DNA from: Iphinoe sp. HA4291-MV1
GTDB taxonomy: Bacteria > Cyanobacteriota > Cyanobacteriia > Cyanobacteriales > Nostocaceae
Assembly (NCBI GenBank): GCA_019359415.1
Contig: JAHHHH010000035.1
Coordinates: 1 to 64,000 of the forward strand
Reading direction: 5' to 3'
Length of the DNA stretch: 64,000 bases
The notes beneath the pieces were generated by a model. It was not told where the DNA came from, searched no databases, and was given only the letters and a program-made list of their open reading frames with translations. Position 1 is the first letter of the stretch, and the number at the start of each line of letters is the position of its first letter. Positions 17,777-35,790 of this stretch are shown here, one piece after another. The translations under genes and the position numbers were made by a program.

Positions 17777-20700
17777 CTAGTGGTTAATCTTTTCTAGTTG
17801 TTGCAGCAACAATGCTTCTGCCTCTTCTTCAGAAAGTTGTTCTACTTCTGCTAAAACATTCGAGTCAGCCGCATCGCTCTCGTTCATATTTGCCGATGTC
17901 TCAATTGACAGTATTTCCGTCGCTAGATAATTAACCAAAGCCTCTACTGTTGGATAATCAAATATCAGGGTCGAGCGGAGTGAGCATCTCAGGCTAGCTT
18001 CCAGCCAATTCTTCAGTTCCACCGCCATCAGCGAGTCAATTCCCAGATCAAACAGTCTCTGACGGGGTTCAATTTGTTCGGGTGAACTTAAAGCAAGAAC
18101 CTTGGCAATTTGAGAGCGAATATGAGTTGCCAGAAGAGTATGACGTACTTCTAACGGAGCTGCTTCTAACTGCTGGAGAAACTGCGATTTTTCTTTTGAG
18201 GTTGGTTCGATTCCGGTGGCGAATCCTTCTAGGAAGGTTGATACTGTGTCTTGAGCAAATTGCCCAATAAACTTTGACCAGTTAATCGATATCACCCCGA
18301 CTTGGGCAAGGCTGTGCTCCAGTAATCCCAAAAGCTGCAATCCTTCACCAGAAGAGATGGTTCCTAGACCTAGCGCTGACAAGCGATCGCGATCGCGGTC
18401 TTTGAGAGCAGCTGACATTCCAGCTTCTGACCATGGTCCCCAGTTGATACTCAAACCCGGTAATCCCATGGTACGGCGATGCTGCATCAGCACATCCATA
18501 AAAGTATTGGCAGCTGCATAGTTGCCTTGACCGAGTGAACCAAATAAAGCTGCAACTGAAGAGAAGCAGACAAAGAAGTCAAGTGGTAATTCTTTAGTTA
18601 ACTCATGCAGATGCCAAGTTCCTTGAACTTTCGGTGCCATTACCTTCACAAAGCGCTCCCAGTTCTGCTGCAGCAAAACTCCGTCATCCAAAATTCCCGC
18701 AGCGTGAATAATTCCTCGCAAGGGTGGCATAGTTGCTTGAACTTTATGAAGTAACTGAGCAACATCTTCTTGTTTCGCAATGTCTACAGAGGCAACCAAA
18801 ACTCTAGTTCCCATCTGTTCTAATTGCTGGATGGCTGCAACAGTTCTGTCGTCAGCGCCACGACGCCCAGCCAGGATAAGATATCGCGCCCCTTGCTCAA
18901 CTAACCAATGTGCTACCTTAAGTCCTAAGGCTCCTAGACCGCCAGTAATGAGATAGCTACCATCTTCTCGCACCAGTTCCTCTAAATTCTTTGCATTTGC
19001 TGCAATCTTTGGCTGAGAAACCACCACTTTGCCGATATGTTTCGCTTGCGCCATGTACCGGAAGGCATTAACCACTTCCTCAATAGGAAAGACCTTGTGT
19101 GGTAAAGGTTTCAGTTTGCCGTCCTGGAATTCCTGCATCAGATCTTGCAATATAGAGGCGATCGCTTTTGGCTCGTTCATTGAAATGTTGAGCAGTTCGA
19201 AAGGGAAGTAGGACACATCAGGTCTAGTAGCTTGTACCTGCTCATGCTCCCAAATGCCAATCTTACCAATTTCGACGAATCTTCCCCCTCGTCCCAATAC
19301 CTCAAAGCTCTTAGAAATGAATTCACCACTCAAGCTGTTAAGCACAATGTCCACACCCTGTCCCTGAGTAATTGCCATGATTTCTTCCGCAAAATCCAGG
19401 GTTCGGGAGTTCATCACATACTCCACACCCATGGACTTGAGGAAGTTCCACTTACTTGGGCTAGCAGTGGCAAATACTTGTGCTCCTGCTGTTTGAGCAA
19501 TCTGAACAGCTGCCTGACCGACACCACCAGCCGCTGCATGAATCAAAACGCGATCGCCTGGTTTGATTTTAGCCAAACACTGCAATCCGTAGTGTGCTGT
19601 CGTGAAGGCGACCGGAATTGTCGCTGCTGCTTCAAAGCTCAGCCCTTGCGGTTTGTGGGCTACCAAATTAGCATTGACAACGACAAAGCTGTTAAAACTA
19701 CCAATAGCGTTGGCTGCAATCACTTCGTCACCAACCTTAAAGTTGGTCACACCTTCACCTATTGCTACAATCTTGCCCGCACACTCCCCACCAAAGGGTA
19801 GGTCGTCTGTTGACTTAATCCCCAATTGCTCGATATGTTCCTTGAGCATTCCCAAGGCATTAAGCACATCTCGGAAGTTCAACCCAGTCTCACGGACTTG
19901 AATTTCCACTTCTCCTGGTTCCGGTTTGCGCCGCGTCAACGGTACTAAAGTTAGATTATCTAAAATACCGTACTCGGAAATCTTCAATTCAAAGGGCTCA
20001 ACGCCAATCTGAACTTGTCCCTGTTGAACAGTCTCACTCGACTGGTATCGCTCCAACCTAGCGACGTAACGCAAACCCTGGCGATACGCAATTTGGTTTT
20101 CTCGATCACCAGAGGATAGCTCTTCCACCAAAGCTGAGATATCGTCTGTTACCGGATCTAAATCCAAACACATGCAGTGCAAATCGGGGTGTTCCAGAGT
20201 TATGACTTTACCCAGTCCCCACAGTGGAGACTGTTGAACTTGCACAGGTAAGGAAGCACTTCCAACCAACTGTGCTCCTTTGGTTACCAACCAGAAATGT
20301 TGCAACCCAGACAATTGAGCTATATGCAGGGATTGAACCAAGTGAAGAACACTACCACTGCCTAAACTTTGCGCTCGCTGCAAAGCATCTGAAGAAAGCT
20401 CATTTCCCGCTGACTCTAAACTCCACAAATGCACAATTCCACGGAAAGAAGACTCACCATCCTTACCAATATCCTGAAGTAAACATTGGAAGTCTGCAAG
20501 TGCTAGTGGATCAAGTTCGTAATGTTCTGATGTTATCTGCTTATAAGTGGAGCCAACAAAAGCTAGAACACAGCGATCGCCCTGTGTTCTCAATTGTTTA
20601 GCTAGTTTTGTACCAATGCCTGTGCTATCTGCAAATATGAGCCAGTTGCTTTGCTGTTTACGACTTACTGATGACGATTGAGGCTGACGTGGCTGAGGTT

Positions 20701-23700
20701 TCCAGATGACTTGGTACAGCCAATTTCCTAAATTTTCCTTTTGAAGGATGCGCTGCAAAACTTTGGAGTTAGTTCGCCTGACGGTTAGTCCCTCTACCTG
20801 AGCAATAAGCATTCCATTCGGATCTAGTAGACTCAAATCAGTGCGCAACAGTTGCTGCTCTAACCCCTGAGCTTGTACAATTTTGACTTGACTCCATAAC
20901 AAATGAGTATTGGGGCGAGAATAAATTCTCAAGCGCTTTACACTCACAGGTAAATAAGCATCTTGCCGCTCATCTATGGAAAAAATACCCGCTATAACTT
21001 GGAAGCTAGCGTCTAGGAGAACAGGGTGTAATTGATACTGAGCAGCTTCTGAGTGTAATACTTCTGGCAATCTAATTTGCCCGATCGCCTCTTCCTGACG
21101 TTTCCTAATTTGTGCAACCGCCTGAAAGCTTGAACCGAAGTCGACGCCTACAGCCTGAAATTGTTGATAGTAGTCAGCAACAGAAACTTCCTCTGGGTAT
21201 TGAGTTTGTAAAGTAGTTAAGTCTACCGATTCTGGGAAGAGTGCTGCTTCGTCCCTCTTGATTTTTCCAATGGCGTGTAGTGTCCAGATGGGTTTCTCCT
21301 CATCCTGACTTTCTGTGAGGCTAAAGATTTGGAAAGAGTAGCCAGAAGTCTCTTGAGGCGTCAACACCATTTGCAGAGTTTTACCCTCATCTTTTGGCAA
21401 TATCAAAACTTGCTGAATGTCAACATCCTCTAGTACCAAATTTGAGGATTTGAAGACAGCTGCTCCTGCTGCCAAAGCCATCTCCAAGTAAGCTGTAGCT
21501 GGTACAATTGTTAAACCAAAAACGCGATGATCATTTAGATAAGCTGGCGAATCTTGACTGATTTGGCACTGGAAATGAATATTTTCAGAACCTGGTAGAT
21601 GCAAGCGTTGACCGAGTAAGGGGTGATAATTCTCCGCATTTGTACCCTTTGTTGACAAAAACTGCGTTTGATGACGTGTCTCCACCCAATAGCGCTGTCG
21701 TTGGAAGGGATACGTAGGCAACACCACTCGCCGATGTGCATACTCTCGGTCAAACCTTGACCAGTCTACCTCGGCTCCACGTACGTATAATTCTGCTAAA
21801 CTCTGGAGCATTTGCTGCCAGTCTGATTGCTTTGGACGCAAGCTGGGCAGCCAGACACCCACTTCTTCTGCTAAGCAGTTACGCCCCATCCCCAATAAAG
21901 TTGGTTTGGCTCCGATCTCTACAAACACCTCATAACCCTTTGCATGCAGTGTCTTAATACTTGACGCAAATTGGACAGGACTGCGTAAATGTTGACACCA
22001 GTAATCCGCTGAGATCTCTTGCGATGTCAGTTGTTCTCCAGTTAAGTTCGAGATGATGTCAATTTGGGGAGCTGCGTAGTTGACCGTAGCTGCTATCTCA
22101 CGAAATTGAGCCAGTATCGGCTCCATCAGCGGTGAGTGGAAAGCGTGCGATGTTTGTAGCTTTTTCGTCTTTATTCCTGCTGCCTCTAGTTGGGCTACTA
22201 TTGCCCGCACTGCACCCACCTCGCCAGATATCACCGTGTTTTCCGGTCCATTATATGCTGCTATTGCTACTTTTTTATTATTTGTTTCAATAATTTTGCT
22301 TATAGATACTTCAGATGCAAACACTGCCACCATCTCTCCTTCTGACGGCAAACTCTGCATCAGTTGCGCTCGTTGGGCAATCAGCTTGAGTCCATCCTCT
22401 AAGCTCATCACTCCTGCACTGACAGCTGCTACGTATTCTCCGACACTATGACCCATCACTGCATCCGGAACAATTCCCCAGGATTTCCACAACTGCACGA
22501 GCGCATATTCTACGGCAAACACAGCCGGTTGCGTATATGCTGTTTCATCTAATGGTGAGCTTGACTCATCTTGGGGATACAGCACTGATAGCAGCGGCTT
22601 TTCTAAATAGGGACGCAGAATTTCATCGCATCTGTTCAGCGTTTGCCTGAAGATGGATTGTGTTTCGTAGAGTTGCCGTCCCATCCCTATATACTGCGAT
22701 CCCTGACCTGTGAACAAAAACGCTATCTTGGGTACACTGCTGCTTTGCCTCTGAAATACCCCTGCTTTCTGTCCGCTGGAAAAATCTGCTAGCTTTTCAC
22801 GCACTTGTGTTGATGAGGATGCCACTATACTCAGCCGATGCGGAAAATGAGAACGACCTGTATTGGCAGTAAAGCAGATGTCTTCTATAGCTAAAGATGG
22901 ATTGACACCTAAGTAATTCTCATATTGAAGTGCTAACTGCTTCAGTGCCTCTTCGGTCTTCGCGGATAGCGTCAGCAGATGCACTGGGCGTTCTTTTTGA
23001 GCTTGCACTGGCTCTAATACTGGCGCTTCTTCCAACACGATATGAGCATTAGTACCACTCATCCCAAAGGAACTGACTCCTGCCATCCGTCGTTTTTCTC
23101 CGGAAAACCAGAGCATCGGCGACTTGGATACCACCACTGGCATTTCATCCCAGTTGATGTAAGGATTGGGTTGCTCGAAGTGCAGATGAGGAGGTATCTC
23201 GTTGTGTTGCAGAGAAAGTAACACTTTGATGATACCTGCTATTCCTGCTGCTGATTCTAAGTGACCGATATTGGTTTTCACTGAACCAACTATGAGAGGG
23301 TTTTCTGGCGATCGCCCTTCACCGAACACAGCTCCTAAAGCTCTGATCTCAATGGGGTCTCCCAAAGACGTTCCTGTAGCGTGAGCCTCAATATAGTTTA
23401 CCTCAAAAGGCTCTATTTTAGCGCTCTTCAGCGCTTGGCGAATCAGTGCTTGCTGAGCCGAACCATTGGGAACCGTCAAACCACTACTGGGTCCATCATG
23501 GTTGATCGCGGAAGCCCGAATCAGAGCTAAGATGTTATCTCCATTCGCCTGTGCATCTGAAAGGCGCTTGAGGACTATAATGCCGCATCCCTCACCCCGC
23601 GCAAAACCATTGGCTGCCGCATCGAAGCTGTGGCAGCAGCCATCAATGGAGAGGGCATGGGATCTGGATAGAAAAATATGTACTTCTGGTGATAGCATCA

Positions 23701-24415
23701 GCTGTACTCCGCCAGTCAAAGCCAGATCGCACTCTCCCGTACGCAAGCTCTTACAAGCTTGATGAATCGCTACCAACGAAGAAGAGCAAGCAGTATCTAT
23801 TGCTATGCTTGGACCTTGTAGCCCTAGAACATAGGACAATCGACCAGACGCAAAGCAAAAGCCATTACCTGTGCCGTCATAAACGCTGATGCGTGTAGGA
23901 TCACCAGAATTCAGTTGCAATTGTGCATAATCATTTTGACCAATTCCTATAAAAACGCCAGTTCGGCTACCCGCTAAATAGTTGGGTGCAATTCCAGCCC
24001 TCTCCAAGGCTTCCCAGCTCACCTCCAACAGTAACCGCTGCTGCGGGTCCATGCTCATCGCTTCCCGAGGGGAAATCCCAAAAAACAGGGGATCGAACTG
24101 GTCTACCTGCTGCAAAAATCCACCCCTACGAGTGTACATTTTCCCTTGGGCATCGGGGTCTGGATCATAGTAAGCATTGATATCCCAGCGATCACGGGGA
24201 ACTTCTACCATCGCATCCACGCCATTGTGCAAAAGACTCCAGAAGGTATCTGGATCATGAGCACCCCCAGGAAAACGACACCCCATGCCAATGATTGCGA
24301 TCGGCTCTGTGCTTGAGCGCTCAACCGCCTCAAGTTTGGTTCGTGCTTCCTTCAAAGCAAGAAGTAGTCGTTGCGATGAAGACAGATTATCTATTCTGTC
24401 AGAAATGTTGTCCAT
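17777..24415 (-). CDS. Fully reducing type I PKS, KS-AT-DH-ER-KR-ACP
   Basis: Protein of 2212 aa. Domains in order: N-terminal helical docking segment; KS (TACSSS near 210; the usual EAHGTGT reads EAHATGT here); AT (GHSVGEY near 655, [11 protein letters not shown], malonyl type); complete DH (His in HRVFGLTIVP near 963, Asp in HPVLLDASFQ near 1135); ER (NADPH-binding AAAGGVGQAA near 1625); KR (TGGLGALG near 1825, HAAGILDDG); ACP (LGIDSLMAVE near 2128). All reductive domains keep their motifs, so the module should give a saturated two-carbon extension. The C terminus carries an acidic helix (VEQLSEEEAEALL) of the cyanobacterial PKS docking type, matching the N-terminal helix of the next PKS. 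The gene begins 1 nt after the upstream stop, so the two are probably translationally coupled. The Gly-to-Ala change in EAHATGT is conservative and probably tolerated. Confidence 0.96.
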   Translation of the reverse strand: MDNISDRIDNLSSSQRLLLALKEARTKLEAVERSSTEPIAIIGMGCRFPGGAHDPDTFWSLLHNGVDAMVEVPRDRWDINAYYDPDPDAQGKMYTRRGGFLQQVDQFDPLFFGISPREAMSMDPQQRLLLEVSWEALERAGIAPNYLAGSRTGVFIGIGQNDYAQLQLNSGDPTRISVYDGTGNGFCFASGRLSYVLGLQGPSIAIDTACSSSLVAIHQACKSLRTGECDLALTGGVQLMLSPEVHIFLSRSHALSIDGCCHSFDAAANGFARGEGCGIIVLKRLSDAQANGDNILALIRASAINHDGPSSGLTVPNGSAQQALIRQALKSAKIEPFEVNYIEAHATGTSLGDPIEIRALGAVFGEGRSPENPLIVGSVKTNIGHLESAAGIAGIIKVLLSLQHNEIPPHLHFEQPNPYINWDEMPVVVSKSPMLWFSGEKRRMAGVSSFGMSGTNAHIVLEEAPVLEPVQAQKERPVHLLTLSAKTEEALKQLALQYENYLGVNPSLAIEDICFTANTGRSHFPHRLSIVASSSTQVREKLADFSSGQKAGVFQRQSSSVPKIAFLFTGQGSQYIGMGRQLYETQSIFRQTLNRCDEILRPYLEKPLLSVLYPQDESSSPLDETAYTQPAVFAVEYALVQLWKSWGIVPDAVMGHSVGEYVAAVSAGVMSLEDGLKLIAQRAQLMQSLPSEGEMVAVFASEVSISKIIETNNKKVAIAAYNGPENTVISGEVGAVRAIVAQLEAAGIKTKKLQTSHAFHSPLMEPILAQFREIAATVNYAAPQIDIISNLTGEQLTSQEISADYWCQHLRSPVQFASSIKTLHAKGYEVFVEIGAKPTLLGMGRNCLAEEVGVWLPSLRPKQSDWQQMLQSLAELYVRGAEVDWSRFDREYAHRRVVLPTYPFQRQRYWVETRHQTQFLSTKGTNAENYHPLLGQRLHLPGSENIHFQCQISQDSPAYLNDHRVFGLTIVPATAYLEMALAAGAAVFKSSNLVLEDVDIQQVLILPKDEGKTLQMVLTPQETSGYSFQIFSLTESQDEEKPIWTLHAIGKIKRDEAALFPESVDLTTLQTQYPEEVSVADYYQQFQAVGVDFGSSFQAVAQIRKRQEEAIGQIRLPEVLHSEAAQYQLHPVLLDASFQVIAGIFSIDERQDAYLPVSVKRLRIYSRPNTHLLWSQVKIVQAQGLEQQLLRTDLSLLDPNGMLIAQVEGLTVRRTNSKVLQRILQKENLGNWLYQVIWKPQPRQPQSSSVSRKQQSNWLIFADSTGIGTKLAKQLRTQGDRCVLAFVGSTYKQITSEHYELDPLALADFQCLLQDIGKDGESSFRGIVHLWSLESAGNELSSDALQRAQSLGSGSVLHLVQSLHIAQLSGLQHFWLVTKGAQLVGSASLPVQVQQSPLWGLGKVITLEHPDLHCMCLDLDPVTDDISALVEELSSGDRENQIAYRQGLRYVARLERYQSSETVQQGQVQIGVEPFELKISEYGILDNLTLVPLTRRKPEPGEVEIQVRETGLNFRDVLNALGMLKEHIEQLGIKSTDDLPFGGECAGKIVAIGEGVTNFKVGDEVIAANAIGSFNSFVVVNANLVAHKPQGLSFEAAATIPVAFTTAHYGLQCLAKIKPGDRVLIHAAAGGVGQAAVQIAQTAGAQVFATASPSKWNFLKSMGVEYVMNSRTLDFAEEIMAITQGQGVDIVLNSLSGEFISKSFEVLGRGGRFVEIGKIGIWEHEQVQATRPDVSYFPFELLNISMNEPKAIASILQDLMQEFQDGKLKPLPHKVFPIEEVVNAFRYMAQAKHIGKVVVSQPKIAANAKNLEELVREDGSYLITGGLGALGLKVAHWLVEQGARYLILAGRRGADDRTVAAIQQLEQMGTRVLVASVDIAKQEDVAQLLHKVQATMPPLRGIIHAAGILDDGVLLQQNWERFVKVMAPKVQGTWHLHELTKELPLDFFVCFSSVAALFGSLGQGNYAAANTFMDVLMQHRRTMGLPGLSINWGPWSEAGMSAALKDRDRDRLSALGLGTISSGEGLQLLGLLEHSLAQVGVISINWSKFIGQFAQDTVSTFLEGFATGIEPTSKEKSQFLQQLEAAPLEVRHTLLATHIRSQIAKVLALSSPEQIEPRQRLFDLGIDSLMAVELKNWLEASLRCSLRSTLIFDYPTVEALVNYLATEILSIETSANMNESDAADSNVLAEVEQLSEEEAEALLLQQLEKINH

Positions 24416-24416
24416 T

Positions 24417-27400
24417 TCAGTTCCCCCTCACCAAATTTTCTAGTTTTTCGAGTTCCTCCGCAATTGACGCTTCTACTCCAACTTCGGAAAGCTGTTCTAC
24501 CTCTAACAAAGCCTCGGCTTGCTCGTCTTCAGCTTTGGGCAACTCTGTGTCACTCAAAGCAGGTATCTCCCAACCCATGACCTGTCTTGCTATATATCCG
24601 GCAAGATCTTTAATGGTCGGAAATTCAAAGGTTATAGTGACTGGCAGAGAAGCGCCCAAATTGACTTCCAAGCGGTTCTTGAGCTCGACTGCCATCAGAG
24701 AGTCCATACCCATATCAAAAAAACCTTGCTGCGGGTTTGGCAATTTGGATGGACCAAGTTTCAGTACCCTAGCGACTTCACTTTGAATGTAAGTAATTAA
24801 TAAAGAGAGGCGATCACGAAGCGTTTCTGTAGGAGATTCGCTTGCCAAGTGCTGTTTTAACTTTTGTAAAATTTCACTTTCGGACACCTTTGACTGTTGA
24901 GACTGCAGCGTGGCTTCTTCTTGCAAAACCTGGCGGCTCAGCTTAGACAGAAAAGGAGATTTAGCAGCTATTTGATCTATTTGGAGAAGCTGTGACCAGT
25001 TTATTGGAATTGCCCAAACTTGTGTTAAGTTTTGGCATAAAGCACGGCTCATTGCTTGCAATCCTTGCTCAGGCGTAATACTTCCGATTCCAAAGCCTGC
25101 AAGTCGCTCGTCGTTGCGAACTCGTGCAGCCATACCAACCTCTGCCCAAGGTCCCCAGTCAATGCTAAGTGCGCTCAAGCCTTGGACTTTGCGATAATGA
25201 GCAAGAGCGTCCAAAAAGGCATTGGCAGCACTGTAATCACCTACTCCGCGATTTAATAAGCCCAGTTGGTGCGTTGCTGAAGAGAAAAGTATGAAAAAGT
25301 CTAAATTAACTCCTTCAAAAAGACGGTGCAGCAGCCATCCTCCCATCACTTTTGGACGCAACACCTCATTCACTCTGGCAGTATCCAGTTCTTGCAGTAA
25401 TTTTCCTCCTGGTATACCTGCCATGTGCAGCACACCTCGAACTGGTGGACAACCTTGATTTTTCAGTGCCTGTAGCACGGAGGACATCTGTGCCTCATCT
25501 GCTACATCAGATGAGGCAAGATACACAGTTGCTCCTTGGGCTTCCAACTTCGAAACAGCAGCCACTTGGCGCTCTACGTAGCTACCTTCTTCTACCTCAC
25601 TCCAACTGTCGCGCGGAGGCAGTGTAGTACGTCCCAATAAAATGAGATGCCGAGCACCTTGCTCTACCATCCATTGAGCGACTTGAAGTCCTATGCCTCC
25701 TAGTCCTCCAGTCAGCAGATAACTGCAATCCTCTCTCCAGCTGAACGGAAGTACACTTTGCGTAGATTCTTCACGCTTTTGTATAAGACGGGCAACATAA
25801 GGCTGCCCCTGACGGAAAACAAGTTGATCTTCTATATCCTGACCATATATGATATTTAACAATTGAGAAGCCGTTTCATCTCCTGTCGCTTGAGGATCTA
25901 AGTCTACCATTCCTCCCCAAAGTTCCGGGTGTTCAATAGCACATGTCTTACCTAAACCCCAAAGCGATGCTTGAGCGACTGCTGGAGGTGCAGACTCTGT
26001 ACCTACCAGTTGAGCACCTCTGGTGACAACCCATACACGAGGCGGTATGGATTGTTTCGCGTTGCTCACTACTGCTTGAACTAGGCTTAATACGCTGTGA
26101 ATCCCTAATACCTGGGAAGCCTCCAGAGAATCAGGTGTCATCTGAAAAGAAAAAGTTTCATCCAGACTCCACAAATGAATCACACCTCGGCAGAGTGGTT
26201 GATTCGGCTCTAGTACATTCTCAATTAACTGATGCACCTGTTCTGGTGAACTTGGGTTAATCCTGAATTGTCCCTGTTCTGATATCTGGTAAACTTCGCC
26301 AGGAGTAACCATCAAACAGGTTTCTCCACGTGCTGTTATCAGCGCTGCTAATCTTTGTCCAACACCGCTGCTATCTGTGAATATTAACCAACTACCTAGC
26401 TGTTCTGGTTGCAGATTCTTGATTTCTTGTAGTGATGTTGCTTCCCATTGCAATTCATAAAACCAATTATTATTAAGATTTTCTTGGGTCATCCGTGCAG
26501 CAGTTTCAGTTCGCCGTAGCTGTAAGCCAGAAGCCTTGGCTACCAACATTCCTGCCTGGTCGAAAATGTGTACGTCTCCCTCAAACTCGTTTGCGCTACG
26601 GCTGAGTTCTGACCGCAGAACAGCATGGCTCCAAAGGAGTTTGTCAATTGGACCGTTGACTTGTAAACTGCGAAGACCCACGGGTACATAAAGCGCACCC
26701 CCACTATCTAAAAGATTGTAAGTTGGCAGTGTAGCCACCAACACTTGGAAACAAGCATCCAGAAATGCTGGGTGGATTTCGTAATCATCTGCTGATGGTT
26801 CCAATTCTTTGAGAAGCTGTACCAGTGCTAGGGATTCCCCATCGCGTCGCCAGAGGCGTTCTATACCTTGGAAACTCGCTTCCAACTGCACTCTGTATTC
26901 GTCGCGTAACTTCTTATAGAACTGTGAACCAGGAATCTCTTCTGGACATCGAGCCTGAATTTTTTCTTGTGAAAATTCTGAGAAACCCGAACTAGCACCA
27001 TTAGCACTATCAGCATCATGAGTCGAAATGCCTGAAACACTCGACTTCGCAGCCAATATTTCGGCTGCTGTGGAATTGCGATGTTTGTGCGATCGCAATT
27101 CCACAGCATGGTAACGCTCTTTGAGTTGATTTAAGTAGGGTAGGTGTTTGAGAATCAAATCTGCCTTTGGTCCAAAGTCGAGCAGACAGGCGGCTTCATC
27201 CACGCCTATGCTATCTAGTTGCTCTAGCAAATCAAGACATGTTTCGGGTGTCCCAATGAGTCCTCTGGAAGAAGCAAATCTTTCATACAAGAAATTAACA
27301 AAATCATCCAGGTCTTTTGGAGACAGGGAGGCAATATCTGCGCTGCGACCTCTACTACTGGCAAGATTTTTAAGCAGACCGAAGTTAGATTTGAGATATT

Positions 27401-28148
27401 CGCAATAGGGTCTGCGAACAAGTTCGCGGACAACATTCATGTCTTCCCCAACAAAGGTATGCAACATCACCGTCACCACACCTGCTTCCGGAGCGTGTCC
27501 GTGCTTGGCTCGTGCTTGACGATAAAGGGCAATTTTTTCGGCTAATTGCTCAGTGCTCTGGTCTAGTAGATGAGTCAAAAGATTGGCACCAATCTCTCCC
27601 GCTTGAGTAAAGGTTTGGGGATTCCCGGCGGCTGTGATCCAGATGGGCAATTCTTTTTGGATTGGCGTTGGGTAAACCCTAACCTCAATCTGGTTACCAT
27701 TGCCATTTGTCACTGGGATAGATTCGCCTTGCCAAAGTTTTTGTATTGTTTGGATACCAGAAAACATTTCTTTGTGGCGGTTTGGAAATTTCTCTGGATA
27801 AAAGGCAAAATCATCAGGGTTCCAGCCGGAAGCAAAGGAAATTCCTACCCGACCTCCTGACAAATTATCGACAACAGCCCATTCTTCCGCAATCCGAATG
27901 GGATTGTGTATTGGCGCGACTACACTGCCAGCTTGTAAGCGGAGGTGCTTGGTTTCCCTTGCTAATGCTGCGTGCAACACTGCTGGATTTGGGTAAAGAC
28001 ACCCAAATTTTGTAAAATGCCGTTCTGGTACCCACAAACTGGAAAAGTCATGTTGGTCGGCAAATCTAGCACTCTCAATAACCAGACGATATTTATCTCC
28101 GATTAAAGCCTCTTCACTGCTGGCAAAAAACATCAAACCGAACCGCAT
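24417..28148 (-). CDS. LLM monooxygenase - second half of DH - KR - ACP
   Basis: Protein of 1243 aa with no KS or AT. Residues 1 to about 340 form a luciferase-like flavin monooxygenase of the natural-product type (starts MRFGLMFFASSEEAL; FASGWNPDDF; PIWITAAGNP). After a linker of about 60 residues rich in Ser/Ala comes the C-terminal hot-dog of a PKS dehydratase (QFYKKLRDEY..., catalytic Asp464 in HPAFLDACFQ). Then KR (TGGLGGIG near 815, HMAGIPGG without LDD, DYSAANAF) and ACP (MGMDSLMAVE near 1148). The missing DH half, with the catalytic His, is the C terminus of the upstream gene. The start is secure: AGGAG lies about 9 nt before ATG, after the TGA of the upstream gene. The C-terminal helix (LEVEQLSEVGVEA) matches PKS docking. 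Related LLM domains oxidise carrier-bound chains, for example in microginin synthesis; site and product here are unknown. Together with the upstream protein this makes one elongation module. Confidence 0.93.
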   Translation of the reverse strand: MRFGLMFFASSEEALIGDKYRLVIESARFADQHDFSSLWVPERHFTKFGCLYPNPAVLHAALARETKHLRLQAGSVVAPIHNPIRIAEEWAVVDNLSGGRVGISFASGWNPDDFAFYPEKFPNRHKEMFSGIQTIQKLWQGESIPVTNGNGNQIEVRVYPTPIQKELPIWITAAGNPQTFTQAGEIGANLLTHLLDQSTEQLAEKIALYRQARAKHGHAPEAGVVTVMLHTFVGEDMNVVRELVRRPYCEYLKSNFGLLKNLASSRGRSADIASLSPKDLDDFVNFLYERFASSRGLIGTPETCLDLLEQLDSIGVDEAACLLDFGPKADLILKHLPYLNQLKERYHAVELRSHKHRNSTAAEILAAKSSVSGISTHDADSANGASSGFSEFSQEKIQARCPEEIPGSQFYKKLRDEYRVQLEASFQGIERLWRRDGESLALVQLLKELEPSADDYEIHPAFLDACFQVLVATLPTYNLLDSGGALYVPVGLRSLQVNGPIDKLLWSHAVLRSELSRSANEFEGDVHIFDQAGMLVAKASGLQLRRTETAARMTQENLNNNWFYELQWEATSLQEIKNLQPEQLGSWLIFTDSSGVGQRLAALITARGETCLMVTPGEVYQISEQGQFRINPSSPEQVHQLIENVLEPNQPLCRGVIHLWSLDETFSFQMTPDSLEASQVLGIHSVLSLVQAVVSNAKQSIPPRVWVVTRGAQLVGTESAPPAVAQASLWGLGKTCAIEHPELWGGMVDLDPQATGDETASQLLNIIYGQDIEDQLVFRQGQPYVARLIQKREESTQSVLPFSWREDCSYLLTGGLGGIGLQVAQWMVEQGARHLILLGRTTLPPRDSWSEVEEGSYVERQVAAVSKLEAQGATVYLASSDVADEAQMSSVLQALKNQGCPPVRGVLHMAGIPGGKLLQELDTARVNEVLRPKVMGGWLLHRLFEGVNLDFFILFSSATHQLGLLNRGVGDYSAANAFLDALAHYRKVQGLSALSIDWGPWAEVGMAARVRNDERLAGFGIGSITPEQGLQAMSRALCQNLTQVWAIPINWSQLLQIDQIAAKSPFLSKLSRQVLQEEATLQSQQSKVSESEILQKLKQHLASESPTETLRDRLSLLITYIQSEVARVLKLGPSKLPNPQQGFFDMGMDSLMAVELKNRLEVNLGASLPVTITFEFPTIKDLAGYIARQVMGWEIPALSDTELPKAEDEQAEALLEVEQLSEVGVEASIAEELEKLENLVRGN

Positions 28149-28166
28149 GATTTTTTCTCCTGTTTA

Positions 28167-31100
28167 TCACTGTGGGCAGATTTTTGCAGTTGCATGTAAT
28201 GTCCACTTTTTGGGGGATTGCTCTGCATCTGTTGGGCGGCTATAGACTTGAAAAGATGCGCTTGCATCCACATCAGTAGCAAGGATCACCTGAACAGTTT
28301 GAGTGCCATTCTCAGGAACGAAGAGTACATTGTGTAGCTCCAGATCCTTCACCTGGTGAAACTCTTGCCCAAAGGCTTCTTTGCTAGCGGCTAAAGCCAT
28401 TTCTAAATAAATGGTCAAAGGTAATACTGCCGCTCCCCGGAGTCGATGCTGTCCCAAATATGGGAGGCGAAGTTTATCAAGTTCTATTTCCCAGCAGTAA
28501 TTGTTGGGAAGATGAGCCAATTTTTTTAATTGAGCGCCCAAAAGTGGATGTCCTTTAATACCGTTTGAGTTCTCCTGATATTCCAGACGGTACAAGTCTT
28601 TGTTATCTGCTTTTGTCTCAACCCAATACTGCGATCGCTCCCACGGATAAGTCGGTAAACTGATTCGCTGACGCAGATAGTCTCGGTCAAAACCAGACCA
28701 ATCTACGTTTGTTCCACGTACGTATAGTTCACTCAAACTCTGGAGCATTTGCTGCCAATCTGACGGTCCCGGACGCAAGCTGGGCAACCATACTCCTACT
28801 TCTTCGCTCAAGCAGTTACGTCCCATTCCCAACAATGTTGGTTTTGGTCCGATCTCCACAAACACCTCATAACCACTACTGTGAAGCGTCTTGATACTTT
28901 CGGCAAATTGTACAGGCGAGCGTAAATGCTGACACCAATATTCTGGAGTGATTGCTTCTGCTGTTTGCCGCTCTCCAGTTACGTTGGATATCAGATCAAT
29001 GTGGGGGGCGGCGTAGGTCACCTGGTTAGCCATCTCGTGGAATTCTGCCAGTATCAGCTCCATCAGTGGTGAGTGGAAAGCGTGGGATGTTTGTAGTTTT
29101 TTGGTCTTAATTCCTGCTGCTTCTAATTGGGTTGCTATTGACCGCACTGTCTGCGCCTCACCAGAAATAACGGTACTTTGCGGTCCATTATATGCTGCAA
29201 TTGCTACTTTATTTTTATGTAACTCAATAATTTCTCGTAGAGACGCTTCCGATGTCAACACTGCTACCATCTCACCACCAGGAGGTAAACTCTGCATCAG
29301 ACGGCTTCTAATAGCAATTAGCTTTAGCCCATCTTCTAAGCTTAAGACTCCGGCAACAGTTGCAGCGACGTATTCCCCTACACTATGACCCATCACTGCA
29401 GTCGGTTCGATACCCCAAGATTTCCACAATTGCACCAGGGCATATTCTAGGGCAAATAATGCCGGTTGGGTATAAGCAGTTTCATCTAGAGGTGAGGTTT
29501 CCCCTGCTTGAGGATACAGAACTGATAGCAGGGGCTTTTCCAGATAGGCACGTAGAATTTCATCGCAGCGATCAAGTGTTTGCCGAAAGGTGGGTTGGGT
29601 CTCGTAGAGTTGCCGCCCCATGTCTATGTACTGCGACCCCTGACCTGTGAAGAGGAAGGCTATCTTCGGGCGCTTTTTGCTGCTTACCTGACCACTCACA
29701 AGTCCGGCAGTCTCCCTATCGGTGAGCAAATTACTGAGTGCTTCTTGTAACTGCACAGCTGATTCAGCGACAACGGCAAGACGGTGGTTAAAATGCGATC
29801 GCCCCGTATTAGCAGTGAAGCAAACATCTGCCAACGATACTTCAGGATGAGACGCCAAGAAATCTACATAACTTTGTGCCAAATTTTTGAGAGCGTTGTC
29901 ACTTTTCGCTGAAAGCGTAAGAAGGTTAACTTCGCGTTCGTTCTCACTAGCTACCGCAGCCGTTAAGGGCGCTTCTTCTAAGATGACATGGCAATTGGTA
30001 CCACCGAAGCCAAACGCGCTAACTCCAGCTAAACGCCTTTCCTTTCCTGAAGACCAAAGTTGACACTCAGTTGGAATACAAAAGGTCGTCTCTTCCAAAG
30101 AAATATATGGATTGAGCTGCTTCAGGTGCAGATGAGGCGGAATTTTTTGATGTTGCAGCGAAAGTACGACCTTAATGACGCCAGCTATCCCAGAAGCTGC
30201 TTCCAAATGACCAATATTGGTCTTGACCGAGCCAAGCCAACAGGTCCGCTCTGGCTCACGACCCTCCATGAGCACGGCTTTGAGAGATTTGAATTCGATT
30301 GGATCTCCCAGAGAAGTGCCAGTACCGTGAGCTTCAACATAGCTAATCTGTGCTGGTGTGACTCCTGCATTTTTCAAGGCTTGACGGATGACTGCCTGCT
30401 GAGAAGGTCCATTGGGGGCTGTCAGTCCATTACTCAAACCATCTTGGTTAACTGCCGTACCTCTGATGACTCCCAGAACCTTATTCTCATCTCTCAGAGC
30501 ATCCGAGAGGCGCTTGAGGACAACGACACCGCATCCTTCACCCCGGACATAACCATCAGCACTGGCATCAAAGGTTTTACAACGACCATCCGATGACATC
30601 ATGCGAGCTTGGGAGTAGATAATGCTCTGTTCTGGTGACAGCATCAAGTTCACTCCTCCAACAAGGCACAAATCGGATTCTGCATTTTGCAAGCTCCGAC
30701 AGGCAAGATGTATCGCCACTAGGGACGAAGAACAGGCTGTTTCGACTATCAAACTAGGACCCCGTAAGTCGAGCAAATAGGACAGACGATTGGCAGCAAC
30801 ACCAAGCGTACTACCAGTGCCATCGTAGGCATCAATGCGGGCTACACCTCTTTTCGGTATCAGAAGTCCGTAATCATAGTTACCAATCCCAATAAAAACA
30901 CCAGTTAAACTACCCGAAAGACTGGCAGGCACAACTCCCGCGTTCTCCAAAGCCTCCCAAGCAACCTCCAAAACCAACCGCTGCTGAGGATCGATTCGCT
31001 CTGCTTCGCGCGGAGAAATGCCGAAGAAGTCTGCATCGAACCGATCTACCTGTTTGAGGAATCCGCCATGGCGAGTATTCATCTTTCCTGGTGTAGCTGG

Positions 31101-31250
31101 CTCTGGACAGTACAAGGCATCAATATCCCATCGCTCCGGAGGAACTTCAGAGATCGCATCTACCCCGTTGCACAAGATCTGCCAGAAGCCCTCCGGACTG
31201 TCAGATCCGGGAAAACGGCAACCAATACCAATAATTGCGATAGGTTCCAC
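28167..31250 (-). CDS. Type I PKS, KS-AT-first half of DH
   Basis: Protein of 1027 aa. KS starts at residue 1 ([21 protein letters not shown] near 172; EAHGTGT; NIGHLE). AT follows (GQGSQY near 535, [17 protein letters not shown], malonyl type). The C-terminal 125 residues are the N-terminal hot-dog of a DH (HPLLG; catalytic His935 in HRLRGAAVLP), ending at WTLHATAKI, precisely where the inter-half linker would begin. The start is a GTG at 31250 with AGAGG upstream; an in-frame TAG lies 27 nt further up and no ATG intervenes. It therefore lacks the N-terminal docking helix found on the other PKSs. That fits a first module loaded from a free ACP rather than from another megasynthase. There is no carrier domain on this protein: the module's KR and ACP are on the next gene, 18 nt downstream. 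Confidence 0.94.
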   Translation of the reverse strand: MEPIAIIGIGCRFPGSDSPEGFWQILCNGVDAISEVPPERWDIDALYCPEPATPGKMNTRHGGFLKQVDRFDADFFGISPREAERIDPQQRLVLEVAWEALENAGVVPASLSGSLTGVFIGIGNYDYGLLIPKRGVARIDAYDGTGSTLGVAANRLSYLLDLRGPSLIVETACSSSLVAIHLACRSLQNAESDLCLVGGVNLMLSPEQSIIYSQARMMSSDGRCKTFDASADGYVRGEGCGVVVLKRLSDALRDENKVLGVIRGTAVNQDGLSNGLTAPNGPSQQAVIRQALKNAGVTPAQISYVEAHGTGTSLGDPIEFKSLKAVLMEGREPERTCWLGSVKTNIGHLEAASGIAGVIKVVLSLQHQKIPPHLHLKQLNPYISLEETTFCIPTECQLWSSGKERRLAGVSAFGFGGTNCHVILEEAPLTAAVASENEREVNLLTLSAKSDNALKNLAQSYVDFLASHPEVSLADVCFTANTGRSHFNHRLAVVAESAVQLQEALSNLLTDRETAGLVSGQVSSKKRPKIAFLFTGQGSQYIDMGRQLYETQPTFRQTLDRCDEILRAYLEKPLLSVLYPQAGETSPLDETAYTQPALFALEYALVQLWKSWGIEPTAVMGHSVGEYVAATVAGVLSLEDGLKLIAIRSRLMQSLPPGGEMVAVLTSEASLREIIELHKNKVAIAAYNGPQSTVISGEAQTVRSIATQLEAAGIKTKKLQTSHAFHSPLMELILAEFHEMANQVTYAAPHIDLISNVTGERQTAEAITPEYWCQHLRSPVQFAESIKTLHSSGYEVFVEIGPKPTLLGMGRNCLSEEVGVWLPSLRPGPSDWQQMLQSLSELYVRGTNVDWSGFDRDYLRQRISLPTYPWERSQYWVETKADNKDLYRLEYQENSNGIKGHPLLGAQLKKLAHLPNNYCWEIELDKLRLPYLGQHRLRGAAVLPLTIYLEMALAASKEAFGQEFHQVKDLELHNVLFVPENGTQTVQVILATDVDASASFQVYSRPTDAEQSPKKWTLHATAKICPQ

Positions 31251-31313: not shown

Positions 31314-32714
31314 TTAAGCAACTGAACTGGCAAACTGTTTGAAGGCTGCGACGTTGCGTTGAATAGCTCTTTCAATCGACCCACCTGCAGCCATGATACG
31401 CATCTCGCGATTTATCGGCCACAGATAGTCGAGGCGATCAAAAAACCGACGCAAATCGGATAAAAGAATTTGGTGATACTTAAGATTTACGTGAAATCCT
31501 TCATGTTCTTGACACAAGCACTTTTCCATCCAGTGAAGAGCTTCTTGAGAAGACATCCCAAACAGGGGCGAGGTGAGCGAGCGATAGTATGAGGGCATGA
31601 AAGAGGCGTCATCTCGGAACACAGCAGGTAGTCCACCAGGAAGTCCACCCAAAACTCCGCGTTGTGTCACATAAATAATGACATTGGCTAGCAATTTCTC
31701 ATACACCGTTGGCTTCGGGAAATCCTTATACACGTCCTGAGAAATTGTCTGAGACATTGTTGTATGGAAGGATTCATCTAACATATGATAGTAAGAGATT
31801 GCTATTGGAGCGGGAATGAACTCGCCATTCTTCTCTAGATCCTTAAAGTGTTTGTAATAGCGATATTCACGGTTCTTCAGGTACATATTCGCTATCATGC
31901 GGGCTGAGTAATACTGTGCTGCTAAGAAGGGTGAACTTCCCCAGTTCAAGGTCAAGAATTTCAACACAGATGGAGATGCCATGTTCCCAGCTAACCCTCC
32001 CGCTGTTGTCGGGATAGTCTGAGTGCCCTTTTGTTCCAAGTAATGCGAATAATAGTCTGCCTTATCCCGAAACATCATCTTAGTGAGCGAGCGAAGGGTA
32101 GACTCCTGCAATGACTCCCAAGATGAACTCGCTTTCAAAGATGCAATTTGCTTTAGCTGCTTTTGAGGGTTGAATCTATCTAGAAAACTTCTACCACTTG
32201 GCTTATTTAACTTTTTATACAAAGGATTGCCTAATGACTCTTTCCCGAGCAAAGCAAGCTTCGTTTTATACCCAATCTTCTGAAAAGCATTGATGTGGTA
32301 TCGTTCCTGAGAGGTTTCAAAGTCTAGCTCCTTACAAAGGGTTTCATAACCCCCAACATTTGCAAAAACACCAGATGTCACCTGGTTATAAAGTATTGTG
32401 TTTATTTCAGATGCGGCAGTATAGTGATACTGCCCAATCCAGTAAAGATGATTAAGAGCTCGCTTCTGTGAAGGAGACGCCTCTTCGTAAAGTGGAGTGC
32501 CATGTAGTGTTGAAAGTTCAGGATCGCCCCAGTAGTAGTCACTGTTGCTGCTGTAGTTATAGCTTTTGCCCAAAGCCTCTATTTTTTCGGTGTAATCGGA
32601 ATCTACATTATTTCGATAGGTTTTCTCAATGACTTGAAAATGCTTTTTTTCCTTGCCCCTGGATAAAGCTGATGACGCGTCATTAGTTTTCGGTGCTTCA
32701 GCAGTATTTGTCAT
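31314..32714 (-). CDS. CylC-type dimetal-carboxylate halogenase candidate
   Basis: Protein of 466 aa, mostly helical, with three ExxH motifs: ERYH near residue 138, ESFH near 314 and EGFH near 405. A further Glu lies in YTAASEINTILYNQ near residue 107. This is the ferritin-like di-metal ligand pattern of the CylC family, whose members chlorinate unactivated carbons of acyl-ACP in cylindrocyclophane and related cyanobacterial pathways. It lies directly downstream of a FAAL and a free ACP, the same order as cylA-cylB-cylC. I infer that it halogenates the fatty acyl starter bound to the ACP. Family assignment rests on motifs and context; a related oxygenase or desaturase activity cannot be excluded. 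It is 63 nt from the first PKS gene, so probably co-transcribed. Confidence 0.8.
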   Translation of the reverse strand: MTNTAEAPKTNDASSALSRGKEKKHFQVIEKTYRNNVDSDYTEKIEALGKSYNYSSNSDYYWGDPELSTLHGTPLYEEASPSQKRALNHLYWIGQYHYTAASEINTILYNQVTSGVFANVGGYETLCKELDFETSQERYHINAFQKIGYKTKLALLGKESLGNPLYKKLNKPSGRSFLDRFNPQKQLKQIASLKASSSWESLQESTLRSLTKMMFRDKADYYSHYLEQKGTQTIPTTAGGLAGNMASPSVLKFLTLNWGSSPFLAAQYYSARMIANMYLKNREYRYYKHFKDLEKNGEFIPAPIAISYYHMLDESFHTTMSQTISQDVYKDFPKPTVYEKLLANVIIYVTQRGVLGGLPGGLPAVFRDDASFMPSYYRSLTSPLFGMSSQEALHWMEKCLCQEHEGFHVNLKYHQILLSDLRRFFDRLDYLWPINREMRIMAAGGSIERAIQRNVAAFKQFASSVA

Positions 32715-32741: not shown

Positions 32742-32930
32742 CAAGCGAGCTTTCAGTCCGCTTTTATGCTTGAAAATTCTGAACTTCAACACCGAGCAAT
32801 AGCCTGAACAATTGGGAATCGTGATATATATATTAGCGAACTTAAAGTTCGCTTTTATACCTTTATAACTATAACTCTGTTCTCAAATACCGGACTAGAG
32901 CCTGAACAGTTGGGTAATCGTACATGAGAG
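32742..32930. repeat. Tandem duplication of ACP gene tail plus hairpin
   Basis: Two imperfect copies of about 90 bp lie head to tail. The unit at about 32834-32930 holds a hairpin (32835-32853) and the last codons of the ACP gene. The unit at about 32742-32825 repeats both: a degraded hairpin (AAGCGAGC...GTCCGCTTTT) and a stretch matching the ACP tail (GCCTGAACAATTGGGAATCG against GCCTGAACAGTTGGGTAATCG), but out of frame. It looks like the leftover 3' end of a second ACP gene. Confidence 0.7.
32835..32853. other. Hairpin behind the ACP gene
   Basis: Perfect inverted repeat AGCGAACTT-A-AAGTTCGCT just after the ACP stop codon. Read on the coding (minus) strand it is followed by AATATATATAT rather than a T run, so it is at best a weak terminator or an mRNA-stabilising element between the ACP and halogenase genes. 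Confidence 0.55.
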
Positions 32931-33210
32931 TTGGATCGATATCACGTTCGAGCCAATCTGCTAGCTCGCCAGTCAGACCAACGGTTGCTGAAGAATCTAG
33001 ACCATATCGGTCGAAAGGAATCGTGACATCGACTTCATCCGGTTCAATCTCCAGTAGATTAGCCACATAAGAGACTATCCAGGCTTGAATTTCTGCTGTC
33101 GTAGGCAGTTCTTTGCTTGCATTACCGCTAGCTTCAGCTATGGTACTATCAGCTATGATGCTTTCCGGAACGACAAGCATATCAGTGCGTTCAAGATTTT
33201 GGACTTCCAT
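32869..33210 (-). CDS. Free acyl carrier protein (CylB-like)
   Basis: Protein of 113 aa. The phosphopantetheine attachment site is Ser73 in RYGLDSSATVG, within a typical ACP fold (AWIVSYVANLLEI before it, YDYPTVQALVRYL after it). About 40 residues of acidic, Ser/Ala-rich extension precede the ACP core. The GLDSS form rather than GxDSL is common in carrier proteins paired with FAALs. It should accept the fatty acyl group from the FAAL at 33904-35790, carry it during halogenation and pass it to the first KS. The start codon follows the sequence AAAACGATGAAGGTTTAAACAA without a strong ribosome-binding site. The gene is separated from the FAAL gene by 693 nt. Confidence 0.9.
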   Translation of the reverse strand: MEVQNLERTDMLVVPESIIADSTIAEASGNASKELPTTAEIQAWIVSYVANLLEIEPDEVDVTIPFDRYGLDSSATVGLTGELADWLERDIDPTLMYDYPTVQALVRYLRTEL

Positions 33211-33903: not shown

Positions 33904-35790
33904 TCATAGCTGTTTGCCAGTTGATATTTTCTGTAGAATAGATTCAACCTCAGATTGCAAATGCAAAAACTTAACTTTGTTCTGAGGATTTTCACTCCAA
34001 TCCTCCACGACATTCAAACTTCCGGTGAGAAACCCAGAGCGACAAGCATGGCGCTGAATTTTACCACTCGAAGTCTTAGGGATACTCCCAGTCTTAACTA
34101 GTACTGTGGCATAAACCTGTAGACCGTGTTCTGCTGCAACAGCCTGACGGATATTCCCTACTACCCCATTTACATCCAGTTTTCGTAGGTAACTACGCTC
34201 CACTTCTTGAACAACGACCAGTCGCTCTTCACCCTTTCCTTCCACTGTAAACGCTGCTCCACAACCAGATCGCAGTGCTGGATGACTCTTCTCTACAGTC
34301 AGTTCAATGTCTTGGGGATAATGGTTTTGCCCACGGATGATAATCACATCTTTGACACGCCCCGTGACAAACAGTTCGCCATCCTGTAAGAATCCCAAGT
34401 CCCCCGTTCGTAAAAAGGATTCTGACGCTCCTCCTCCTGTCGTCGCTAACGCTGACGTAACGCTAACACCAGTATCTTGTAGTCGCGCTCGAAAAGTTTG
34501 CTCGGTCTGGTCTATTCGGTTCCAATAACCCTGAGCTACGCTAGGACCAGATACCCAAATTTCACCTACCTCGTTGGGCTTACATTGGGTCATTGTTTTT
34601 GGATGAACAATAACAACCTGGAGATCCTCTAAAGGTTGACCGCAACCAACCACTGTTTGAGTGAGAGTATCCTTTGTACTCTTGGCTGGAACTACCCGAT
34701 TTTGCTCTAGCGCTGCTTTTTGGATGGTTTGCAGGACTGGCAGACCACTTGCTTGACTACCAGAAACAATTAAAGTTGTTTCTGCCATACCGTAGCACGG
34801 GTAAAACGCCTCGCGGCGAAAGCCACAAGATGCAAAAGCTGCTGCAAACCGTTCCATAGTCTCAGCACGGACTGGTTCAGCTCCGTTGAAAGCCACCTGC
34901 CAACTACTGAGGTCGAGAGTCGCCTGCTGTTCGGGAGTAATCTTGTTCACGCATAGCTCGTATGCAAAATTGGGTCCGCCACTTGTAGTAGCTTTATATT
35001 GGGAAATTGCTTGCAGCCAACGCAAGGGACGTTGCAAAAACGTCTCTGGAGACATAAGAATACAAGGAATACCTAAGTACATCGGCTGAAGCATATTCCC
35101 TATTAGACCCATGTCATGGAAAAGAGGAAGCCAACCCACGAAGATAGTTTTCTCGGTGTGCTGCATCGCTTGCTGGATAATTTTTTGATTGTGCATCAAA
35201 TTTCCATGACTCATCATCACACCTTTTGGAGTTCCCGTAGAACCCGAAGTGTACTGGAGGAAAGCAAGGGTACTGTTTTCCAAAGTTGTTTTCTGCCATG
35301 ACTCTGCTTGGGCTTCGTCAATGTTATCGGTAGCCAAACAGCGCAATCTAGCTACTGGATCCTCAGCAAACTGACTCTTTATGTTAGTCAATAGAGCTTC
35401 AGTGGTCAGTAGCACTTGAGGTTGAGCATCTGCGACAATTGCCTCTAGTCGAGACATCTTTTGATTACGTTTGGGTGGATAAGCGGGAACAGCCACAACA
35501 GAGGCATACAGACACCCAAAAAAGGCTGCAATAAATTCCAGACCCGACGACGGATATAGTAGTAAAGCTCGTTGTCCAGTAGCCCCTATGCTTTGGAGTT
35601 GAACTGCGATCGCTCGTGCGAGTCGATCCAATTCTCCATAAGTTAAACTACTTAGTTTTGTGTTTAAACTACTTAGTTTTGTGTCTTGATCCTCATCTAT
35701 CTTAGTTATAAAGGTATAAGCTTGACAGTCTTGCTGCTGCTGCGCTCTTTCCCTCAACACATCTACCAAAGTAGAAAATTTCTGTAACAT
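33904..35790 (-). CDS. Fatty-acyl-AMP ligase (FAAL), pathway starter
   Basis: Protein of 628 aa of the ANL adenylating superfamily. Motifs: YTSGSTGTPKG near residue 178, GWLPLFHDMGLIG, YGMAETTL, LRTGDLGF and a C-terminal Lys in PKTSSGKIQR. The HDMGLIGN segment, the length and the context fit FAALs, which make acyl-AMP and hand it to an ACP rather than to CoA. It should activate a free fatty acid and load it on the ACP at 32869-33210. It is the first gene of the run of minus-strand biosynthetic genes and probably defines the 5' end of the cluster. Near residues 38-53 the sequence contains a small internal duplication (TKLSSLN TKLSSLT) encoded by a 21-bp tandem repeat around 35645-35690, in a variable loop before the first conserved helix. 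Confidence 0.92.
   Translation of the reverse strand: MLQKFSTLVDVLRERAQQQQDCQAYTFITKIDEDQDTKLSSLNTKLSSLTYGELDRLARAIAVQLQSIGATGQRALLLYPSSGLEFIAAFFGCLYASVVAVPAYPPKRNQKMSRLEAIVADAQPQVLLTTEALLTNIKSQFAEDPVARLRCLATDNIDEAQAESWQKTTLENSTLAFLQYTSGSTGTPKGVMMSHGNLMHNQKIIQQAMQHTEKTIFVGWLPLFHDMGLIGNMLQPMYLGIPCILMSPETFLQRPLRWLQAISQYKATTSGGPNFAYELCVNKITPEQQATLDLSSWQVAFNGAEPVRAETMERFAAAFASCGFRREAFYPCYGMAETTLIVSGSQASGLPVLQTIQKAALEQNRVVPAKSTKDTLTQTVVGCGQPLEDLQVVIVHPKTMTQCKPNEVGEIWVSGPSVAQGYWNRIDQTEQTFRARLQDTGVSVTSALATTGGGASESFLRTGDLGFLQDGELFVTGRVKDVIIIRGQNHYPQDIELTVEKSHPALRSGCGAAFTVEGKGEERLVVVQEVERSYLRKLDVNGVVGNIRQAVAAEHGLQVYATVLVKTGSIPKTSSGKIQRHACRSGFLTGSLNVVEDWSENPQNKVKFLHLQSEVESILQKISTGKQL

What the first reader, a model, noticed from the sequence alone, without database searches (positions are those of the whole stretch)
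26700..28500. A PKS dehydratase split across two proteins with a luciferase-like monooxygenase at the joint
Seen: the protein at 28167-31250 ends with the N-terminal DH hot-dog (His935 in HRLRGAAVLP) at WTLHATAKI. The next protein starts with an LLM domain of about 340 residues and then continues with exactly the missing C-terminal hot-dog (Asp464 in HPAFLDACFQ), KR and ACP. The intact DH at 17777-24415 shows that the break falls in the inter-hot-dog linker. A TGA, a second TAA and an AGGAG site make a real gene boundary. Inference: the two DH halves reassociate, acting as a non-covalent docking device that brings the LLM into the module. This junction has none of the docking helices used elsewhere in the cluster. 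LLM domains in NRPS/PKS lines are known; this placement inside a divided DH I do not recognise.
Basis: partly seen in the sequence, partly recalled or inferred. Interest (0 to 1): 0.88.

Follow-up and report, generated by a model that had tools for sequence, protein, structure and literature searches.

The report
Flavin oxygenase inside a split dehydratase
A bacterial assembly line has one enzyme domain cut in two across neighbouring proteins with an oxygen-adding enzyme at the cut, and relatives with known products suggest that the cut domain now mainly holds the oxygen-adding enzyme in place rather than removing water.

Summary
KS-AT-DHn stops 3 residues after the first hot-dog; the next protein starts at residue 1 with a TIGR04020 luciferase-like monooxygenase (LLM), then the second hot-dog, KR and ACP. 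It is conserved: 16 loci counting the window (four named phyla and one unnamed) carry it as two genes; a seventeenth (L105) has DHn-LLM-DHc in one frame. So the break is real and the three parts are one unit.

The dehydratase reading is weakened. Two loci belong to clusters with solved products: cyanochelin B (CcsC) and, by gene order and size, occidiofungin (OcfI). Both products carry an alpha-OH and keep the beta oxygen at the carbons this module should build (for occidiofungin C7 partly inferred). Four of 17 members lack the catalytic His or Asp, one of them beside an intact DH, yet both halves are under purifying selection. Best reading: the DH fold is a scaffold and joint for an alpha-hydroxylating LLM.

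A split DH without LLM is known (cremimycin), as are LLM alpha-hydroxylases and dead DH folds, so this is a new variant. Binding of the halves is untested; the structure service was busy at all 13 attempts.

The parts
28167..31250 (-). KS-AT-DHn protein (P0002, 1027 aa, GTG start)
30123..31250 (-). ketosynthase domain (Cys173 in TACSSS)
28710..29657 (-). acyltransferase domain (Ser623 in GHSVG)
28179..28550 (-). DHn, first hot-dog of the dehydratase fold, His935
   Evidence: ends 3 aa before the stop
28157..28169 (-). gene boundary: TGA, TAA, AGGAG ribosome-binding site
24417..28148 (-). LLM-DHc-KR-ACP protein (P0001, 1243 aa)
27120..28148 (-). luciferase-like monooxygenase domain, MupA/Atu3671 family (TIGR04020); best match among solved structures is 6ket PuwE
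26976..27119 (-). linker between LLM and DHc
26493..26975 (-). DHc, second hot-dog, Asp464; the aromatic-Gly motif of canonical DHs is lost (QLEASF)
25857..26387 (-). structural (pseudo) KR half
   Evidence: PF21394 match; reading as pseudo-KR is recalled
25140..25724 (-). ketoreductase domain
24591..24791 (-). acyl carrier domain (Ser1150 in GMDSL)
20753..21625 (-). intact DH of the next module, used as in-cluster control
33904..35790 (-). fatty acyl-AMP ligase-like protein, likely loads the starter
   Evidence: AMP-binding and AMP-dom_DIP2-like
32869..33210 (-). probable free-standing acyl carrier protein
   Evidence: one search matches only the carrier part of two large PKS models

Best explanation
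The two proteins form one polyketide module, KS-AT-[DHn | LLM-DHc]-KR-ACP. A TIGR04020 LLM sits in the linker between the two hot-dogs of a dehydratase fold, and the gene break falls at the start codon of the LLM. DHn and DHc reassociate (inferred) and so join the proteins and hold the LLM over the module's ACP, in place of docking helices. The LLM puts a hydroxyl on the alpha-carbon, most likely of the beta-ketoacyl-ACP (inferred), and the KR then reduces the beta-ketone. The product is an alpha,beta-dihydroxyacyl-ACP, and the reunited DH fold mostly or wholly does not dehydrate. Shown: architecture, conservation, loss of catalytic residues in some members, purifying selection on both halves, and from papers an alpha-OH plus beta oxygen in two related products. 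Inferred: physical association, the alpha-hydroxylation step itself, order of steps, and that this window's module follows its relatives.
For: Conservation: a DHn end (1-33 aa from the ORF end) lies just upstream of LLM-DHc in 16 of 16 two-gene loci including the window, though in L099 with an 817-nt gap. A seventeenth locus, L105, has AT-DHn-LLM-DHc-KR in one open frame. The LLM starts with ATG at its first aligned residue in the window and 14 of 15 relatives; in L099 the ATG is one codon earlier. Chemotype: cyanochelin B (L042; BAU16015 = CcsC, BAU16016 upstream) has a 2-methyl-2,3-dihydroxyacyl unit; its authors draw Ox, cMT and KR, and the word dehydratase does not occur in the main text held. 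Occidiofungin NAA2 has C5-OH, C6-OH and a C7 stereocentre at 3.75 ppm; L043 matches the ocf order from ocfM to ocfG, three genes with identical published lengths, ocfI (3324 bp) = LLM-DHc-KR-ACP among them. Catalytic decay: His missing in L047, L091, L099; Asp to Glu in L029, L047, L099; 8 of 8 canonical controls keep both. L099 has a dead DHn after an intact DH. dN/dS of the halves 0.11-0.44. Best solved match of the LLM is PuwE, whose oxygenase domain its authors assign to a 3-amino-2-hydroxyacyl unit. By eye, no docking helix at this junction but helices at the next two and TubC_N at the third.
Against: His and Asp are both kept in 13 of 17 members, the window included, so activity is not excluded; the four Streptomyces-genus members also keep the YGP motif. 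The DH halves are less constrained than the LLM in 9 of 9 computable comparisons over five pairs that share members, which also fits slow decay. Opitutae modules (L035-L039, L038 being a copy of L037) have an LLM of the same clade with no DH, so the LLM does not need the fold. Association of the halves is untested. L043 was assigned to ocf by gene order and sizes, not by sequence; oxygen on C7 of NAA2 is inferred from the shift and the stereocentre, and xylose at that site is recalled. The A1 profile places only the LLM part in L043; its DHc rests on Pfam. Pfam finds no AT in L043's upstream protein.
Confidence: 0.6

Rival explanations
1. The halves reassociate into an active dehydratase. KR and DH make an enoyl-ACP and the LLM then oxidises it, for example by epoxidation followed by opening to a diol, or the module simply makes an enoyl chain.
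For: His935 and Asp464 are present here and both residues in 13 of 17 members; a split DH reconnected by hand dehydrated in cremimycin (review passage).
Against: Members with His or Asp lost keep the same architecture (L029, L047, L091, L099). The two assigned products keep the beta oxygen (C7 of occidiofungin partly inferred), though a diol by epoxide opening would look alike. The PuwE LLM is assigned to 2-hydroxylation in a module said only to elongate.
Confidence: 0.18
2. The DH halves are decaying remnants that do not associate; the two proteins are held by the LLM homodimer, by KS and KR contacts, or only by proximity.
For: Halves are less constrained than the LLM in 9 of 9 computable comparisons; DH is absent in the related Opitutae modules.
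Against: dN/dS well below 1, also in L029/L047 where catalytic residues are lost (DHn 0.16, DHc 0.36); both halves kept in 16 of 16 two-gene loci, with DHn ending 1-33 aa before the ORF end.
Confidence: 0.19
3. Sequencing error, frameshift or recent pseudogene.
For: The two window ORFs happen to be in the same frame.
Against: Same break in 15 other places with differing frames and spacings; both window ORFs are open throughout.
Confidence: 0.01

Closest known systems
Cremimycin split dehydratase CmiP3/CmiP2 (that PDB 6k97 'Fusion DH' derives from it is recalled)
   Same: A DH domain divided between two PKS proteins; both window halves match 6k97 in order.
   Different: No LLM at the joint is mentioned in the passage seen; dehydration was reported once reconnected; the DHc match to 6k97 is weak (E 0.0044).
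CcsC and its upstream neighbour in cyanochelin B biosynthesis, Leptolyngbya NIES-3755
   Same: Same architecture, LLM 66% identical; product solved (PMC12628792, section 5 read, other parts as passages).
   Different: A stretch between DHc and KR where the authors place a C-methyltransferase; they annotate Ox, cMT and KR and no DH.
OcfJ/OcfI of occidiofungin
   Same: Same architecture by gene order and sizes.
   Different: No AT found by Pfam; labels in the table seen are 'NRP synthetase' and 'Flavin-dependent monooxygenase'.
PuwE and other TIGR04020 LLM domains of PKS/NRPS lines (palmerolide by passage; mupirocin recalled)
   Same: Same LLM family and proposed alpha-hydroxylation.
   Different: LLM described there as an ordinary domain of a module, not inside a DH.
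Pseudo-dehydratase of Pks13 (seen only as a term in a search listing; paper not read)
   Same: A dehydratase fold without dehydratase function.
   Different: Nothing seen about an inserted LLM or a split; not compared here.
Interrupted adenylation domains of NRPSs (recalled, not tested)
   Same: A tailoring enzyme inserted in a loop of another domain.
   Different: Host here is a dehydratase fold, and it is also split between two genes.

Membership tests
TIGR04020 MupA/Atu3671 LLM | score above curated cut-off | tested here: met
   499.8 bits against 244.45
TIGR04020 MupA/Atu3671 LLM | FMN-dependent oxygenation | not testable with these tools
   needs enzyme
PKS dehydratase (double hot-dog) | both hot-dog halves present | tested here: met
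   PF21089 and PF14765, on two proteins
PKS dehydratase (double hot-dog) | catalytic His and Asp | tested here: met
   present in the window, both in 13 of 17 members
PKS dehydratase (double hot-dog) | aromatic-Gly motif of the second half | tested here: not met
   QLEASF in the window; aromatic-Gly in 8 of 8 canonical controls and 4 of 17 members
PKS dehydratase (double hot-dog) | dehydrated product | tested here: inconclusive
   the two assigned related products keep the beta oxygen; this cluster's product is unknown
Split dehydratase of the cremimycin type | DH halves on consecutive proteins that bind each other | tested here: inconclusive
   halves on consecutive proteins; binding untested
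Split dehydratase of the cremimycin type | nothing inserted between the halves (as I understand that system; not stated in the passage) | tested here: not met
   343-residue LLM

The most novel reading that the evidence does not exclude
A dehydratase fold has been converted, in one old lineage now spread over at least four phyla, into a non-catalytic joint that both connects two polyketide synthase proteins and carries a flavin alpha-hydroxylase in its inter-hot-dog loop; insertion of an LLM gene with its own start codon could have made the insertion and the split in one step.
Probability: 0.45. Interest if true: 0.75.

Novelty: new variant of a known kind. Interest (0 to 1): 0.6.

Why it matters
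It gives a sequence signature (DHn at a protein's end, LLM-DHc at the next one's start) for modules that probably make alpha,beta-dihydroxyacyl units. It would correct product prediction, since a dehydratase may be called or the halves missed, and it explains the diols of cyanochelin B and, if the assignment holds, occidiofungin by one module type. If the halves do bind, it is a natural split-protein dock that could be used to join PKS proteins.

Tried and rejected
Sequencing error or readthrough: rejected from relatives with other frames and overlaps. Chance neighbours: rejected, 16 of 16 two-gene loci. One origin of the LLM-in-DH rows: neither shown nor rejected. On the LLM tree they share a clade (100/99) with four DH-less Opitutae modules and two free LLMs; holding the 17 together costs 19.5 log units and is not rejected (p-AU 0.07). 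On the DH tree LLM-associated and canonical DHs separate only weakly (75/52), with long branches. Viral contigs: no relative. Plasmids: 3 of 1116 matching records cover at least 80% of the query in one place; L042 and L043 were used; L044, the third, has a free LLM gene followed by an NRPS gene and blastp found no DHc there. Lusichelin and fatuamide papers gave nothing on this module (passages). Literature searches for a divided, interrupted or pseudo DH: (one search listed 20 of 33 papers); for LLM domains, PuwE or ocf genes. Among what was listed, cremimycin was the only split PKS dehydratase that I recognised. The 2021 cyanochelin paper is not held.
Full report
What is there. On the minus strand, 28167-31250 codes for KS-AT-DHn and 24417-28148 for LLM-DHc-KR-ACP. 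DHn ends 3 residues before the stop and the LLM begins at residue 1 of the next protein. The stretch between is TGA, TAA, AGGAG, ATG. KS, AT and ACP active-site motifs were found by string search. In the window's genome six of seven DHn/DHc pairs, the intact DH of the next module (17777-24415) among them, lie 84-216 bp apart in open frames of equal length. The next two junctions of the cluster carry helix-like tails and coiled starts, read by eye, and the third starts with a TubC_N docking domain; this junction has none.

Relatives. A search of 60 related genomes gave four with LLM and DHc in one place, the window's own included. With the profile A1 both parts were found in 4 of 386 cyanobacterial genomes, 3 of 295 of the genus of L034, 1 of 395 of the phylum of L030 (a second genome had the LLM only), 1 of 21 of the phylum of L031 and 2 of 297 of the phylum of L032 (three places; in the third, L105, the profile covers the LLM only and DHc was confirmed). 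Only the best few candidates per genome were scored, so these are lower bounds, and the groups overlap. A scan of GTDB contigs gave 13 loci, six with DHc matched; plasmids gave three records at 80% coverage, two of them true cases. Duplicate places removed, these are 16 two-gene loci with the window (window, L029-L034, L042, L043, L047, L048, L090, L091, L099, L100, L101) and one one-gene locus (L105). L034 and L100, and L042 and L090, are close pairs, so the number of independent cases is smaller. In L033 and L105 the record starts at the AT, so the KS was not seen. In L043 Pfam finds no AT and blastp only a remnant. In L099 the second DHn follows an intact DH and is separated from the LLM gene by 817 nt with an antisense ORF that looks thioredoxin-like by eye.

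Gene boundary. Spacing runs from -4 (five loci) to 122 nt, and 817 in L099; the frame offset differs from 0 in 12 of 15 relatives; 14 of 15 LLMs start with ATG at their first aligned residue. This excludes an error in the window and shows that the LLM keeps its own start. In L105 the LLM is inside one long frame and lacks the initial Met. One economical history (inference) is that an LLM gene with its start codon entered a DH coding region, which inserts and splits at once.

Is the DH alive? The table covers 17 members and 8 canonical DHs. His: 14 of 17 against 8 of 8. Asp: 14 of 17 (Glu in the other three) against 8 of 8. Both: 13 of 17. The aromatic-Gly motif before the second half is kept in 4 of 17 (L033, L034, L100, L101); the window has QLEASF. 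L047 and L099 lost both His and Asp. Yet dN/dS of the halves is 0.11-0.44 in the nine comparisons that could be computed (DHn of window/L029 is saturated), higher each time than for the LLM of the same pair (0.06-0.31); the five pairs share members. This fits a fold kept for structure with relaxed catalysis; it does not prove it.

What does the module make? Two relatives lie in clusters with known products. Cyanochelin B: section 5 of PMC12628792 (read) reports a chain carbon with oxygen next to a quaternary carbon with oxygen and methyl; it names CcsC as BAU16015, which is L042 20001-24605. The paper lists Ox, cMT and KR, and dehydratase does not occur in the main text held. Occidiofungin: L043 shows epimerase, transaminase, TauD, FAAL-ACP-KS-DHn, LLM-DHc-KR-ACP, KS-AT-KR-ACP-KS-AT and CmlA-like genes in the order ocfM to ocfG (tables seen as passages of PMC10100970, and PMC9494966). 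Against the published sizes the frames give 951/951 (ocfM), 1332/1371 (ocfL), 990/987 (ocfK), 4410/4428 (ocfJ), 3324/3324 (ocfI), 13398/13410 (ocfH) and 1617/1617 (ocfG), taking the start codon that fits best. NAA2 has C5-OH and C6-OH, and C7 is a stereocentre with a methine at 3.75 ppm (passages of PMC10897925); that C7 bears oxygen is inferred, and xylose at that site is recalled. Counting from the FAAL-loaded chain, C7 is the beta and C6 the alpha carbon of this module (inference). So in both cases alpha is hydroxylated and beta keeps its oxygen. The best solved match of the LLM is PuwE; its authors assign the oxygenase to a 3-amino-2-hydroxyacyl unit (PMC4219810 passages). Palmerolide's LLM was given an alpha-hydroxylase role too (PMC8739492 passages).

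History. On a tree of 66 LLMs the 17 LLM-in-DH rows lie in one clade of 23 (100/99, midpoint root), which also holds four Opitutae KS-AT-LLM-KR modules without DH and two free LLMs, one of Aquimarina and one of a genome in the phylum of L030. A single clade of the 17 is not rejected (p-AU 0.07). For this tree I dropped own-window copies, repeats, LLM matches shorter than about 280 positions and those at or under 35% identity.

Relation to the known. A PKS dehydratase divided between two proteins is known from cremimycin, where a reconnected version dehydrated (review PMC11284099, passage). The window's halves match the deposited 'Fusion DH' 6k97. LLM alpha-hydroxylases are known, and a pseudo-dehydratase is named for Pks13 (listing only). 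I found no paper in the held library on an LLM within a DH; subscription papers are largely absent. I therefore call it a new variant of a known kind.

Limits. No structure model could be made. Whether DHn and DHc bind, whether this window's module behaves as its relatives, and the order of hydroxylation and reduction remain inference.

Noticed in passing
window 31314-32714 (-): 466-aa protein between the starter ligase genes and the PKS: a weak AurF match (Pfam below cut-off), no PDB match and no NCBIfam match at 1e-5. From memory such diiron proteins next to FAAL genes in cyanobacteria can be CylC-type halogenases, which would mean a chlorinated starter chain.
   Followed up: partly
L043 15559-20001: OcfJ-like protein, labelled NRP synthetase in the table seen, is by domains FAAL-ACP-KS-(AT remnant)-DHn.
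   Followed up: partly
L099 4637-8902: KS-AT with an intact DH followed by a second DHn without catalytic His at the protein's end.
   Followed up: yes
L105 1-4338: One-gene version AT-DHn-LLM-DHc-KR on a contig of 4339 bases that cuts it at both ends.
   Followed up: partly
L035-L037 and L039, around the match: Opitutae modules KS-AT-LLM-KR-ACP with an LLM of the same clade and no DH.
   Followed up: partly
L030 1498-4818: A second, distant LLM (49% identical) in the protein just upstream of KS-AT-DHn in the Lewinella locus.
   Followed up: no
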